DNA of 34,628 bases, taken from an uncultured Eubacteriales bacterium (GTDB lineage: Bacteria > Bacillota > Clostridia > Oscillospirales > Oscillospiraceae). The stretch is taken from the NCBI GenBank assembly GCA_949289455.1, contig CASEOA010000021.1, forward strand, positions 69,282 through 103,909, in the 5' to 3' direction. The notes beneath the pieces were generated by a model, which was not told where the DNA came from, made no database searches, and saw only the letters and a list, made by a program, of their open reading frames with translations. A program made the position numbers and the translations under genes. Positions 5,941 through 11,522 of this stretch are shown piece after piece. The first letter of the stretch is position 1. Each line of letters starts with the position of its first letter.

Positions 5941-6032
5941 GGAGGTGTACCCAAGTGGTTGAAGGGTCCGGATTCGAAATCCGGTAGGTCGGCTTTGCCG
6001 GCGCAAGAGTTCGAATCTCTTCACCTCCGCCA
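5941..6032 (+). tRNA. tRNA-Ser (anticodon CGA)
   Basis: The acceptor stem pairs GGAGGTG (5941-5947) with CACCTCC (6022-6028), followed by G and an encoded CCA. The anticodon stem CCGGA/TCCGG encloses TTCGAAA, giving anticodon CGA (5975-5977) that reads UCG serine codons. A long variable arm (class II, about 5985-6004) and a GTTCGAA T-loop confirm a serine tRNA. It has its own promoter and a terminator 2 bp after CCA. Confidence 0.96.
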
Positions 6033-8290: not shown

Positions 8291-9697
8291 TCAGGGATGC
8301 TGGGGCCAGAAGGCCTCCACGGCCTGTTCCGCCGTCTGGCGGATGCGGTCGGTATAGCCGTTTTTCCAAGCGAAACACATCTGCCGGTCGCAGCCCATGA
8401 GCTGGCAGTCCCCATCGATGAGTGCGGTGGCCCGGCAGCCGCCGCCGCAGTGATAGCGGTATTTGCAGGCGGCGCACTCCTGATTCGCTGTCATCAGATC
8501 TCGTACCCGGCCATTGACGAACTGCATATAGTAGCTGTCGCTGAGCCCCTGACGGAGCCCGATGTCCTGGACTTTGGGGAACCGCTCCTGCTGGGGGCTG
8601 GAGGTCATGGGCATACAGGGCAGCAGCCGCCCCTCTGGGGTGATATAGCAGGACCAGCGGGCGGCGCCGCACAGATGGCGGTCCAGACAGTGCTCCGTTC
8701 CATCGTAAGGAGAGGGAACGATATGATAAGGGAGCTCCTGGTTCAGCACAATGATCCCGCCCAAGGTGAGCTGGCGGATCGGCCGGCCCGTCCGGTAGTA
8801 CCAGTCGATATAGGGGAGCATCCCCTCCATATATTCCTGCTGGGTCAGGACGTTGCCCTGGCTGTTGCATTGCCAGAGCGGCGTCATGGAGACGTTGGAT
8901 ACTTTCAGCACTTCCACGCCTGCCGATTTGAGGGCGTCCACAGTCTGGGGCAGGCTGTTGATGTTCCCGCGGTGGATACACATCTCTGCGTCCGTTTTCA
9001 GACCGTGATCACGGCACAGGCGAAAAGCCCGCAAAGCGGCGTTTTCCGCACCGTTGACTCCCCGCATCCAGTCATGCCAGCCTATCCCGTCAAAACTGAT
9101 GGAGATATCCGGGTGAAGGCCCCGGCGCTTCAGTTGGTCGATAATGGAATCATCCAACAGCCAGCCGTTGGTATAAATTTTTCCGATGGTCATGTGATAG
9201 GACAACATACGGTCGATCAGTTCCCACAGGTCCTTGCGCACAAAGGGCTCGCCGCCGGTGAGATCCACCTGAAGAACGCCGCACTGGGCCATCTGGTCAA
9301 TGAGATCCAGAGCCTCGGCGGTGGACAACTCACCCAGCTTAGCGTCGGGGGCGTCCATGAAGCAGTGCCTGCACCGATAATTGCACCGCCCGGTGACAGA
9401 CCAAAATACGCTCTGAACAAAGCGGTTATGATAATACCGGTAATATTGATCTGGGTCCAGCGGAGTTGGTTGGGCACAGGGCGCAATAATTCCGTCAGCT
9501 TCATATGTATGGAGCGTGGTTTCCATTTCCGGCGTCAAGGGGATGCCATTCAGTTCGGTTTCCCCATCGCAAAGCAGAAGTGTTTGAAATTCATGTGCTG
9601 TCAACGGACGGATCTGATGATCCTGCCTGTTGACCAGCGCCTGTGTGAGCTTTTCCCAGCCCCGGAGCCAATAGTTGGGTGCGAGTCTGTAAAACAT
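8291..9697 (-). CDS. Radical SAM/SPASM peptide-modifying enzyme
   Basis: A 468-residue radical SAM enzyme. Cys105, Cys109 and Cys112 form the CxxxCxxC site (GRCNYRCRHC) for the SAM-cleaving 4Fe-4S cluster, followed by the LTGGEPFVRKDLWE motif. A C-terminal SPASM region has Cys near 350-365 and a series at about 408, 411, 417, 421, 431, 436 and 441 (CX2CX5CX3C), which bind auxiliary clusters as in enzymes that crosslink peptides. Residues 1-95 precede the barrel and may be a leader-binding domain (inferred). ATG 9697 is preceded by GGAGG. It follows the 53-residue precursor gene, separated by a hairpin, so the likely job is thioether or C-C crosslinking of that peptide. The product is unknown. 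Confidence 0.9.
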   Translation of the reverse strand: MFYRLAPNYWLRGWEKLTQALVNRQDHQIRPLTAHEFQTLLLCDGETELNGIPLTPEMETTLHTYEADGIIAPCAQPTPLDPDQYYRYYHNRFVQSVFWSVTGRCNYRCRHCFMDAPDAKLGELSTAEALDLIDQMAQCGVLQVDLTGGEPFVRKDLWELIDRMLSYHMTIGKIYTNGWLLDDSIIDQLKRRGLHPDISISFDGIGWHDWMRGVNGAENAALRAFRLCRDHGLKTDAEMCIHRGNINSLPQTVDALKSAGVEVLKVSNVSMTPLWQCNSQGNVLTQQEYMEGMLPYIDWYYRTGRPIRQLTLGGIIVLNQELPYHIVPSPYDGTEHCLDRHLCGAARWSCYITPEGRLLPCMPMTSSPQQERFPKVQDIGLRQGLSDSYYMQFVNGRVRDLMTANQECAACKYRYHCGGGCRATALIDGDCQLMGCDRQMCFAWKNGYTDRIRQTAEQAVEAFWPQHP

Positions 9698-9751
9698 AGC
9701 AAGGAGCCTCCGTTCCTTTCCTTCTGATACAAGATAGAGTGGGAAAGAAGA

Positions 9752-9792
9752 AAGCCGGCAAACACGACAAATCAAGTCGTGTTTGCCGGCTT
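9752..9792 (-). terminator. Strong hairpin between precursor and radical SAM gene
   Basis: A perfect 17-bp stem (9752-9768 with 9776-9792) with a 7-nt loop, 15 bp after the precursor stop codon. In the minus direction it is followed by CTTTCTTCTTTCCC, a loose pyrimidine tract. It would end most transcripts after the precursor and let some read through into the enzyme gene, and it could also protect the precursor mRNA 3' end. Confidence 0.75.
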
Positions 9793-9806
9793 CTTGGTTT
9801 TGCAGC

Positions 9807-9968
9807 TTAGTAGACGGCGGTAAGATTGTACGAACACGAAACGCCATTCTGGTTGGCCCAAGCGGGGCATCCGCCTCCACCGCCAGCGCCGGAAGTGGTG
9901 ATCACGTCGCTGTTGTCAAACAGGATCACCTCGGCCTCGGCGGACACATAGGCTTTTTTCTCAGTCAT
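9807..9968 (-). CDS. Putative RiPP precursor peptide, 53 residues
   Basis: A short gene not previously sized as an ORF here. ATG 9966-9968 is preceded by AAAGGAG at about 10 bp and ends at TAA 9807-9809. The N-terminal half (MTEKKAYVSAEAEVILFDNS, then DVITTS) looks like a leader; the C-terminal half begins with GAGGGGGC and has two cysteines at residues 34 and 45, several Asn/Ser, a Trp and two Tyr, ending NLTAVY. It has no membrane segment and no Sec signal. Its own promoter lies upstream and a 17-bp hairpin follows. Position between a PqqD/HPr-kinase/peptidase trio and a SPASM enzyme points to a ribosomally made, modified peptide. Cleavage site and modification are not known. Confidence 0.82.
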   Translation of the reverse strand: MTEKKAYVSAEAEVILFDNSDVITTSGAGGGGGCPAWANQNGVSCSYNLTAVY

Positions 9969-9996
9969 ATTGTGACAACTCCTTTCAGAAACTATA

Positions 9997-10024
9997 TTTA
10001 TAATTAAAATACTCAGGGAAACAA
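9997..10024 (-). promoter_or_regulatory. Internal promoter of the precursor gene
   Basis: Minus-strand TTGTTT (10019-10024) and TATAAA (9997-10002) are 16 bp apart in an AT-rich patch at the end of the peptidase gene, about 30 bp before the precursor ATG. The patch stands out from the GC-rich surroundings. Confidence 0.55.
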
Positions 10025-10444
10025 CTTGTTGCGGACCCGTCCGGGCAGGGCCCGGAGCCAGAGGCGGCGGTACCGCCGGTTCAGGGCACGCAGGTAGGCC
10101 TGATACATGGCGCTGTCACAGGAGACATACGCGCCGTCAGGGGAGGGATAGAAACCCGCCATCACGCCGATCACCCAATCGGCGGGCACCCGCTCCCGGT
10201 GGAGCCGGTTGTCCCCCCGGGTCAGGTAGGCCCCGTCCAGCACCTTCACCACCCGGTGGAGCACATAGGCTCCGGTGGGCCGGCGGTAGAGGGCCACGTC
10301 GTAGCGGCTCAGAGGGCCATTGGCAGCTTCGATCACCACGATGCTGCTCTGGTGATGGAGCAGGGGCTCCATGCTGTCCCCCTCGGTGCGGAACAGCCCT
10401 TTGCCATACTGGGCCAGCGCCTGTTCAATGGTCTGCCGGGTCAT
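10013..10444 (-). CDS. S24/S26-type serine peptidase, soluble
   Basis: A 143-residue protein with the signal-peptidase-like core. TEGDSMEPLL carries the serine nucleophile (GDSMxP), and YDVALYRRPTGAYVLHRVV places His before Arg where Lys is usual in bacterial type I enzymes, as in SipW/ER-type Ser-His peptidases; TRGDNR is the conserved following box. There is no membrane segment, unlike true signal peptidases, so it should act in the cytoplasm. Start ATG 10444 overlaps the end of the PqqD gene by 20 bp, suggesting coupled translation. A role in removing the precursor leader is inferred; regulation (LexA-like) is the alternative. Confidence 0.82.
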   Translation of the reverse strand: MTRQTIEQALAQYGKGLFRTEGDSMEPLLHHQSSIVVIEAANGPLSRYDVALYRRPTGAYVLHRVVKVLDGAYLTRGDNRLHRERVPADWVIGVMAGFYPSPDGAYVSCDSAMYQAYLRALNRRYRRLWLRALPGRVRNKLFP

Positions 10445-10706
10445 GGTCCAGGGCAAAGGAGAGGGCGTCCAGGAAAGCCTCCACATCCCGGCGGGCGGTT
10501 TCCTCGTCTACGCCGTCGTAGACCTCCAAAGTCCTGGCCACCAGCGCCTGGGGGGTGGTCCCTCCCTCTATCATATTCCAATAGAGAGCGCCGGTCTCAT
10601 TGAGCCGTACCATCCCGTTGAACTGCTGGCAGGCCTCGCCGATGGCCACTACCATGTGGTCATTGCCCAGCCTGCGCATCAGAAATCCCGGCTTTGCATG
10701 GATCAT
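10425..10706 (-). CDS. PqqD-like peptide-binding protein (RRE)
   Basis: A 93-residue PqqD-family protein: an N-terminal beta hairpin (GFLMRRLGNDHMVVAIG), then FNGMVRLNETGALYWNMIEGG and a C-terminal helical part (TARRDVEAFLDAL). This winged-helix fold is the RiPP recognition element that binds a precursor leader and presents it to the modifying enzyme. ATG 10706 is preceded by GAGGAGGG about 7 bp upstream. It overlaps the HPr-kinase-like gene by 47 bp at its start and the peptidase gene at its end, so all are cotranscribed. Confidence 0.9.
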   Translation of the reverse strand: MIHAKPGFLMRRLGNDHMVVAIGEACQQFNGMVRLNETGALYWNMIEGGTTPQALVARTLEVYDGVDEETARRDVEAFLDALSFALDHDPADH

Positions 10707-11406
10707 AGGCAACCCTCCTCATCATATTATATGCTGTCAGAGCGGCGTCCGGTTCTGGCTTGCATCGCAGCAGGTAAAAGGGAACCGCATCCAGCATCCG
10801 CTCCAAAAGGGCCCAGAACCGGTCGAACACATCCAACTCCGTGGGGAGCAGCACCTGGTGGAACAGGCGGCTGTTTACCTCCGACAGGGAAAGGGGGCGG
10901 ATCTCATTGACCTGTCCCCGCTCCAGAAAGCAGATCCCATCCACCGGACAGGTCAAATTGCTGCCCAGGCGCTCCTTGCCCATCCAGGGGGTGCCGCAGG
11001 CATACAGCACTCCGTCTATAAAGCGGAAGATGGGCTTGTCGCCGTTGACAACCTGAACCCGGGGACCAAACACATCCAGCCACTGTTTCAGGTGGGTGGT
11101 TTTGCCCACACCGCTGGGGGCGGAGAACACATAGGCCCTGCCATCCACGGCTACCACGGCGGCGTGCATCAGAAATGCGTCGTACCGGGGCAGCTCCAAG
11201 CAGATCCGCCGGTAGATACAGATGCTCTCCCGATACCACAGGTGGGAATTCGGACTGACAGCTTCTTCCGCCCGGAGATCTTCTTCGGTAGCACGTACCG
11301 TAAATGCAGGGGGCTGATCGGTGAGATAGGGGTAACAGAGATCCAATACAAAGGGATATTGATTGTCAATCCCGATGGAAATGCCGGCCAGCTTGATACA
11401 AAACAC
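10660..11406 (-). CDS. HPr kinase-like / PEPCK-fold protein
   Basis: About 248 residues. A Walker A-type loop (SAPSGVGKTTH, about residues 95-105) follows a conserved FLMHAAVVAVDGRAYVF strand, and VNGDKP then YACGTPWMGKER follow, as in HprK-like proteins of peptide-modification cassettes. It lacks the N-terminal domain of true HPr kinase and has no nearby PTS genes. Relatives phosphorylate lasso peptides or have unknown roles. I prefer GTG 11406, preceded by GAGGAGA; ATG 11478 would lie almost at the predicted transcription start. It opens the cassette, so it may phosphorylate the peptide or use nucleotide in its handling (inference). Confidence 0.83.
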   Translation of the reverse strand: MFCIKLAGISIGIDNQYPFVLDLCYPYLTDQPPAFTVRATEEDLRAEEAVSPNSHLWYRESICIYRRICLELPRYDAFLMHAAVVAVDGRAYVFSAPSGVGKTTHLKQWLDVFGPRVQVVNGDKPIFRFIDGVLYACGTPWMGKERLGSNLTCPVDGICFLERGQVNEIRPLSLSEVNSRLFHQVLLPTELDVFDRFWALLERMLDAVPFYLLRCKPEPDAALTAYNMMRRVAYDPCKAGISDAQAGQ

Positions 11407-11494
11407 AGGGGACCGTCTCCTCGCAGCGGAAAACTGAGGGCAGGAATAAATTGGAAGATAAAGCGGATTTATTCCCATGTTCTAGGTCAACTAT

Positions 11495-11522
11495 ATTCTA
11501 CCATCAGTATTGAAATTGTCAA
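11495..11522 (-). promoter_or_regulatory. Promoter of the peptide cassette
   Basis: Minus-strand TTGACA (11517-11522) and TAGAAT (11495-11500) are 16 bp apart, about 90 bp before the GTG start of the HPr-kinase-like gene. Confidence 0.68.

What the first reader, a model, noticed from the sequence alone, without database searches (positions are those of the whole stretch)
8291..11522. Compact RiPP-like cassette with a hidden 53-residue precursor
Seen: gene order HPr-kinase-like, PqqD-like, soluble S24/S26-type peptidase, a 53-residue peptide, radical SAM/SPASM enzyme, all minus strand with overlaps in the first three. The peptide has a charged leader-like half ending DVITTS and a tail with a Gly run, Cys34 and Cys45. 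Known: PqqD-like proteins bind precursor leaders and SPASM enzymes crosslink peptides. Inferred: the enzyme makes a crosslink in the tail, the peptidase trims the leader, and the kinase-like protein adds phosphate or plays another nucleotide-dependent role. I cannot name a characterised product with this gene set, and no exporter is in the cassette.
Basis: partly seen in the sequence, partly recalled or inferred. Interest (0 to 1): 0.88.

Follow-up and report, generated by a model that had tools for sequence, protein, structure and literature searches.

The report
Phosphopeptide cassette with radical crosslinking enzyme
A gut bacterium carries a small gene cassette that looks set to make a short peptide, probably tagged with phosphate and crosslinked at its cysteines; it joins a peptide-making gene set first described in 2026 to a radical enzyme.

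Summary
The cassette and its 53-residue peptide are real. In six cassettes (window, P. phocaeensis, Blautia, two Faecalibacterium, one Eubacteriales MAG) the peptide's leader is conserved directly upstream of 8 of 8 close radical SAM genes, with the same kinase, PqqD-like and peptidase genes (6 of 6). Between the two Pseudoflavonifractor copies 12 of 27 leader codons differ, 11 silently.

The accessory genes match the core of linear polyphosphorylated peptides (LPP; Nat Commun, May 2026): an HprK-like kinase that phosphorylates a core Ser, a discrete recognition element, a SipW-type Ser/His leader peptidase. The LPP-type exporter and nucleotidyltransferase, absent from the cassette, occur in all six genomes; in the window's genome they lie on another contig beside a second, Cys-free LPP-like precursor, while kinase and peptidase were found only here.

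New: a radical SAM/SPASM-like enzyme plus multi-Cys cores on an LPP core. Precursors with two or more Cys: 8 of 8 with the enzyme, 1 of 14 without. Best reading: Ser26 phosphorylation plus a radical-made, probably Cys-thioether, crosslink. The crosslink is untested. The LPP leader motif YxxP reads YxxA in all 8, so I call it a new variant, not a strict member.

The parts
10660..11406 (-). HprK-like kinase gene (LppK-like), 248 aa from GTG; P-loop SAPSGVGKTTH, NGDKP motif
   Evidence: Alignment A1 of six cassettes; model resembles PEPCK/HprK; P-loop and DKP motif in the other family members read
10425..10706 (-). PqqD-like discrete RiPP recognition element (LppB-like), 93 aa
   Evidence: Pfam PqqD E 7.7e-16; aligns with LppB crystal chain 9x8z, weakly (E 0.016), keeping N33, D70 and F74 of LppB
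10013..10444 (-). Soluble SipW/SEC11-type Ser/His peptidase (LppS-like), 143 aa
   Evidence: Invariant Ser and His 39 residues apart in six cassettes, as S29/H68 of LppS; profile hits SEC11A E 0.0018
9807..9968 (-). Precursor peptide, 53 aa; leader to about residue 22-25, invariant Ser26, Cys34 and Cys45
   Evidence: Conserved in homologous cassettes; purifying selection on leader
9748..9795 (-). Terminator-like hairpin between precursor and radical SAM gene
   Evidence: RNA fold -34 kcal/mol, z -8.0; hairpins in the same gap in the five other cassettes
8291..9697 (-). Radical SAM/SPASM-like peptide maturase, 468 aa, CNYRCRHC motif, N-terminal domain that may be a fused recognition element
   Evidence: Pfam Radical_SAM E 5.9e-18; nearest solved relatives SkfB, PqqE and by fold SkfB, PqqE, SuiB

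Best explanation
An LPP-type RiPP pathway that has gained a radical SAM/SPASM-like enzyme. The PqqD-like protein binds the leader through Tyr7 and presents it. The HprK-like kinase phosphorylates the invariant Ser26, once or more. The radical SAM enzyme forms a crosslink in the Cys-bearing tail; I favour a Cys thioether of sacti- or ranthipeptide type. The SipW-like peptidase cuts shortly before Ser26 (between residues 22 and 25), releasing a peptide of about 28-31 residues. The exporter and the NTP_transf_5 enzyme, which may decorate the phosphate, act in trans from a second locus that holds a second, Cys-free precursor; the kinase and peptidase of this cassette probably serve both. Shown by sequence: gene set, conservation, one clade of kinases, Cys association, split loci. 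Inferred from LPP experiments: binding, phosphorylation, cleavage. Inferred from association only: crosslink, its chemistry and site, order of steps, shared use of the enzymes.
For: Six cassettes with all three accessory genes and 8 of 8 enzymes with the peptide upstream. Leader under purifying selection, tail freer. LPP: kinase deletion abolished phosphorylation, peptidase deletion abolished cleavage, cleavage needs the RRE. Ser26 invariant in 9 of 9 aligned precursors. Exporter-type ABC and NTP_transf_5 genes in all six genomes. Kinases of the six cassettes form one clade of 49 (99/93). Two or more Cys in 8 of 8 precursors with the enzyme, 1 of 14 without. Nearest solved relatives of the enzyme include the sactipeptide maturase SkfB.
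Against: The LPP motif YxxP reads YxxA in all 8; in LPP the P-13A change weakened leader binding. LPP Ser lies 18 residues after Tyr, here 19, so the cut site is not fixed by homology. The third catalytic residue of the peptidase (LppS D93) is unclear here. The enzyme matches no named maturase family above cut-off (best 25 families shown). Class A tails hold W-x-N, which could be a C-C crosslink site. Rows in the Cys comparison are related and three are weak hits. The window genome is 84% complete, so a second kinase or peptidase there could be missed.
Confidence: 0.6

Rival explanations
1. Same pathway, but the radical SAM enzyme makes a C-C or C-O crosslink (cyclophane type), for example at Trp37-Ala38-Asn39, while the Cys residues form a disulfide or stay free.
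For: W-[AS]-N is conserved in the four class A tails. SuiB, a C-C crosslinking enzyme (chemistry recalled), is among the best fold matches. That W-x-N resembles three-residue cyclophane sites is recalled, not tested.
Against: Class B and the two single-form tails lack W-x-N, whereas two or more Cys occur in all 8.
Confidence: 0.2
2. The radical SAM enzyme alters the peptide without a crosslink (for example epimerisation) on an otherwise LPP-like pathway.
For: The epimerase EpeE appears among the fold matches at lower rank; no crosslink has been measured.
Against: Better matches are SkfB, PqqE and SuiB; the tie with Cys-rich cores is unexplained.
Confidence: 0.1
3. The kinase, PqqD-like and peptidase genes mainly serve the unlinked Cys-free precursor (a plain LPP), and the peptide-enzyme pair is an independent RiPP that merely sits beside them; its peptide is not phosphorylated.
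For: The unlinked precursor keeps YxxP, this one does not; the enzyme may have its own recognition domain.
Against: In six taxa the pair stays with the triad; leaders of both precursors share the EDI/DVITTSG end; kinases of the six form one clade; no orphan precursor was found in the other four genomes at the profile threshold used.
Confidence: 0.07
4. Remnant or variant of a lasso peptide cluster.
For: HprK-like kinases, PqqD and nucleotidyltransferases accompany paeninodin-type lasso peptides (PMC7533575, PMC8498205, passages).
Against: No cyclase or cysteine leader peptidase gene among the cassette ORFs; a SipW-type peptidase instead; leader under selection.
Confidence: 0.03

Closest known systems
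Linear polyphosphorylated peptides (LPP; lppAKBSDN of Paenibacillus alginolyticus; PMC13381572, 2026)
   Same: HprK-like kinase, discrete PqqD-like recognition element, SipW-type Ser/His leader peptidase, variable core behind a conserved leader with Tyr and a Ser near the core start, NTP transferase and ABC exporter in the genome, frequent polysaccharide-locus neighbours
   Different: Radical SAM enzyme and multi-Cys cores; leader YxxA instead of YxxP; exporter and NTP transferase outside the cassette here. 'Radical SAM' and 'rSAM' occur 0 times in that paper's main text; its supplements were not read
Sactipeptides and ranthipeptides (SkfB, PapB, StsB maturases)
   Same: Radical SAM/SPASM-type enzyme beside a Cys-bearing precursor
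   Different: No maturase family over its cut-off; kinase and SipW-type peptidase added; thioether not shown
Paeninodin-type phosphorylated lasso peptides
   Same: HprK-like kinase, NTP transferase, PqqD-like recognition element
   Different: No macrolactam cyclase and no cysteine leader peptidase in the cassette
SynChlorMet cassette (NCBIfam TIGR04249-04251)
   Same: HprK-like protein and radical SAM/SPASM enzymes; PqqD-like partner recalled
   Different: ScmC, ScmE and ScmF models hit far below cut-off (20.5 of 125, 105 of 400, 73 of 400 bits); that it lacks a SipW-type peptidase is recalled

Membership tests
LPP | Discrete PqqD-like recognition element | tested here: met
   Pfam PqqD; LppB N33, D70, F74 kept
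LPP | SipW/archaeal-type leader peptidase with Ser, His (and Asp) | tested here: met
   Ser and His at LppS spacing, profile hits SEC11A; the third residue is unclear
LPP | HprK-like kinase | tested here: met
   P-loop and fold
LPP | NTP transferase and MsbA-like exporter | tested here: met
   In all six genomes; in the window genome and G271 on another contig, in F. gallinarum 27 kb away, in three others at the same locus
LPP | Leader motif YxxPx[V/L]...FETxxS | tested here: not met
   Tyr and Ser kept, Pro replaced by Ala in 8 of 8; the unlinked precursors in L126 and L127 do have YxxP
LPP | Multiple phosphates on one core Ser | not testable with these tools
   Needs mass spectrometry
LPP | Linear core without a crosslinking enzyme | tested here: not met
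   Radical SAM enzyme gene adjacent
Sactipeptide/ranthipeptide | Radical SAM/SPASM maturase beside Cys-bearing precursor | tested here: met
   SPASM itself below Pfam cut-off
Sactipeptide/ranthipeptide | Maturase matches a named family over its cut-off | tested here: not met
   Best 25 NCBIfam hits shown for each of three enzymes all below cut-off
Sactipeptide/ranthipeptide | Thioether bond | not testable with these tools
   Needs mass spectrometry
Lasso peptide | Macrolactam cyclase and B2 peptidase | tested here: not met
   None among the cassette ORFs; the rest of the genome was not searched for them
SynChlorMet | ScmC and ScmE/ScmF models over cut-off | tested here: not met

The most novel reading that the evidence does not exclude
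A hybrid RiPP class in which one peptide is both phosphorylated (perhaps then glycosylated) and radically crosslinked, built by a kinase/recognition/peptidase core that also matures a second, linear, Cys-free peptide encoded elsewhere in the genome: one shared machine, two differently finished products.
Probability: 0.4. Interest if true: 0.8.

Novelty: new variant of a known kind. Interest (0 to 1): 0.66.

Why it matters
If true, it puts phosphate chemistry and radical crosslinking on one small peptide, and shows how a recently published RiPP core recruits a new tailoring enzyme while the core gains cysteines and one leader residue changes. It offers a compact five-gene test system from gut bacteria, natural enzyme-core pairs (class A and class B tails, each with its own enzyme), and a pathway split between two loci, which software that looks for one cluster could miss.

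Tried and rejected
Rejected: (1) the radical SAM frame starting at 9880 and the kinase start at 11478, because homologues start at 9697 and 11406. (2) A chance peptide. (3) The same peptide type for every relative of the enzyme: of 12 named loci, 5 have the triad and the peptide; the other 7 (up to 46% identity) showed no triad hit, though L034, L036 and L040 are cut by contig ends. L036 has a similar leader; others, from the family search, sit by peptides of other types. (4) A plasmid search with the peptide found nothing.

Weak points. The 14 comparison precursors are 12 profile hits in 44 loci plus the two unlinked ones; 5 of the 12 and the two unlinked ones had seeded the profile, and three are weak (L085, L106, L152; E 0.09-0.7). 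L106, with 3 Cys, is the one exception and lies on a 4.6 kb contig. Rows beyond these (E 5.9 or more, including repeats of two loci) were dropped. L036 was left out of the 8. The Pro count (11 of 13) leaves out L150, whose leader is cut. Rows are related, so the Fisher values are not strict. Other genomes of the genus have NTP_transf_5 genes of their own (G182 two, G695 one); '2 of 20' concerns close relatives of the L126 gene (E up to 1e-30). Kinase and peptidase profiles match 5 of 20 genus genomes. PqqD copy number was not searched genome-wide.

Papers. PMC13381572: abstract, sections 6, 7, 8, 9, 11, 12 and passages; not its supplements. PMC7533575, PMC8498205, PMC8326336, PMC12257519: passages. 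PMC10885120 and PMC12710340: term search without a hit. All others: listings. I found no report of this gene combination in searches (open-licence PMC only, no bioRxiv library; titles and abstract starts seen).
Full report
What is there. The five genes lie on the minus strand as described. Homologue alignments set the likely starts: kinase-like 11406, PqqD-like 10706, peptidase 10444, peptide 9968, radical SAM 9697. Between the peptide and radical SAM genes lies a strong hairpin followed by a T-rich run (z -8.0). I folded one peptide-enzyme gap in each of the six cassettes (6 of 8 gaps); each has a hairpin (z -3.3 to -8.0). This would let more peptide than enzyme be made (inference).

Source. 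The window lies in a 2.25 Mb assembly of 111 contigs, 84% complete. The same-genus genome G271 carries the cassette on a contig of the same length (88,921) as that of named locus L029, Pseudoflavonifractor phocaeensis An507. The enzyme was found in 2 of 20 genus genomes at E up to 1e-100, any relative at E up to 1e-60 in 11 of 300 family genomes, and only the window's own among 398 phylum genomes at E up to 1e-90. It is patchy and rare in these samples.

Conservation. A scan of named genomes gave 12 loci. Five of them, those with enzymes 53-82% identical, carry kinase, PqqD-like and peptidase genes and a peptide with a leader of the form Y-E/V-K/S-A-x-A-E-V/I...F-x-N-x-D-V-I-T-x-S-G. With the window that makes six cassettes and eight radical SAM genes; Blautia (L030) and F. 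gallinarum (L037) have two peptide-enzyme pairs each. In L032 the order differs: kinase, peptide, enzyme, PqqD-like, peptidase. All eight enzymes have a precursor 30-182 nt upstream. Tails fall into class A, C-x-x-W-[AS]-N-Q-[NS]-x-V-[AS]-C (4), class B with three Cys (2), and two single forms. On the enzyme tree one change separates class A from class B enzymes, but some nodes are open or weakly supported and 73 of 500 shuffles do as well. Between the window and L029, 12 of 27 leader codons differ, 11 silently (dN 0.024, dS 1.32); 11 of 18 tail codons differ, 7 with replacement (dN 0.27, dS 1.21).

The accessory genes are those of LPP. PMC13381572 (2026) describes linear polyphosphorylated peptides: precursor, HprK-like kinase, discrete recognition element, SipW-type peptidase, exporter, NTP transferase. 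There, deleting the kinase abolished phosphorylation of core Ser3, deleting the peptidase abolished cleavage, and cleavage needed the recognition element. Here the peptidase keeps Ser and His at the LppS spacing of 39 and its profile matches SEC11A; the PqqD-like protein keeps the Asn, Asp and Phe that hold the leader in LppB; the kinase model matches PEPCK and HprK/P, with low TM-scores. Ser26 is invariant in 9 of 9 aligned precursors.

The missing exporter. A precursor profile found a second LPP-like precursor on another contig of the window's genome and of G271, with YxxP, the same EDI[VI]TTSG end and no Cys. Beside it lie an exporter-type ABC gene, a sugar transferase (PF02397) and NTP_transf_5 (PF14907, E 9e-44) (Pfam run on the window's genome only). 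Kinase and peptidase gave one match each in both genomes at E up to 1e-5. A close relative of this nucleotidyltransferase occurs in 2 of 20 genus genomes, the same two that have the cassette (Fisher p 0.005 without correction for relatedness); two other genus genomes have more distant NTP_transf_5 genes. All four other cassette genomes have NTP_transf_5 and an ABC gene similar to that of L126. Blautia, L031 and L032 hold the whole set at one locus. Polysaccharide genes lie beside it in Blautia (flippase, glycosyltransferase, UDP-sugar dehydrogenase) and L032 (Wzz, LytR_cpsA_psr, sugar transferase), and a sugar transferase in L031.

What is new. The kinase profile matches 109 of 391 class genomes at E up to 1e-15, many only in part. 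I fetched 40 loci from among the higher-scoring hits: 19 of 40 show both PqqD and peptidase hits, 0 of 40 this radical SAM family, some on short contigs. The kinases of the six cassettes form one clade among 49 (99/93). Precursors with two or more Cys: 8 of 8 with the enzyme, 1 of 14 without (p 2.8e-5). The fourth leader position is Pro in 11 of 13 without the enzyme and Ala in 8 of 8 with it. So the enzyme goes together with Cys in the core and a change in the leader motif.

Chemistry. The enzyme's best solved relatives are SkfB and PqqE by sequence and SkfB, PqqE and SuiB by fold; the model is of moderate confidence (mean pLDDT 76). Its first 80 residues (pLDDT about 79-95) have strands and helices compatible with a fused recognition domain, but no Pfam family matches there. 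The NCBIfam maturase hits shown are all far below cut-off. A Cys thioether is favoured because Cys is the core feature shared by all eight; a C-C link at W-x-N in class A is not excluded.

Verdict. The cassette is real and best explained as an LPP-type pathway with an added radical SAM step. It is a new variant, since the YxxP leader test and the linear-core feature fail. Phosphorylation and cleavage are inferred from close functional precedent; the crosslink from gene association only.

Noticed in passing
L126:7176-11475 and L127:7740-12052 (other contigs of G000 and G271): Second, unlinked LPP-like precursor without Cys (Asn/Gly/Trp tail) beside an ABC exporter, a sugar transferase and NTP_transf_5; a split pathway.
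   Followed up: yes
L075, L091, L093, L105, L107, L152: Kinase-containing loci in other Clostridia sit next to very large proteins, several with signal-peptide-like starts (about 740-2440 aa); possible targets or cargo of LPP-like peptides.
   Followed up: no
L019, L021, L023, L027, L028: More distant relatives of the radical SAM enzyme sit beside peptides with a double-glycine-type leader end (type name recalled), so the enzyme family serves other leader types too.
   Followed up: no
L022:7623-7763: A 46-residue peptide beginning MFEKPILNLVKFDMKDICTAS directly upstream of a 33%-identical radical SAM gene, with no kinase, PqqD-like or peptidase hit in the 18 kb held.
   Followed up: no
Phage-collection records MT835590.1 and MT835698.1: Kinase-like relatives (32-34% identity) in two unannotated records called bacteriophage from human faeces.
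   Followed up: no
window 5941-6032: tRNA-Ser (cga) on the plus strand, overlapped by spurious ORFs of the mechanical list.
   Followed up: no
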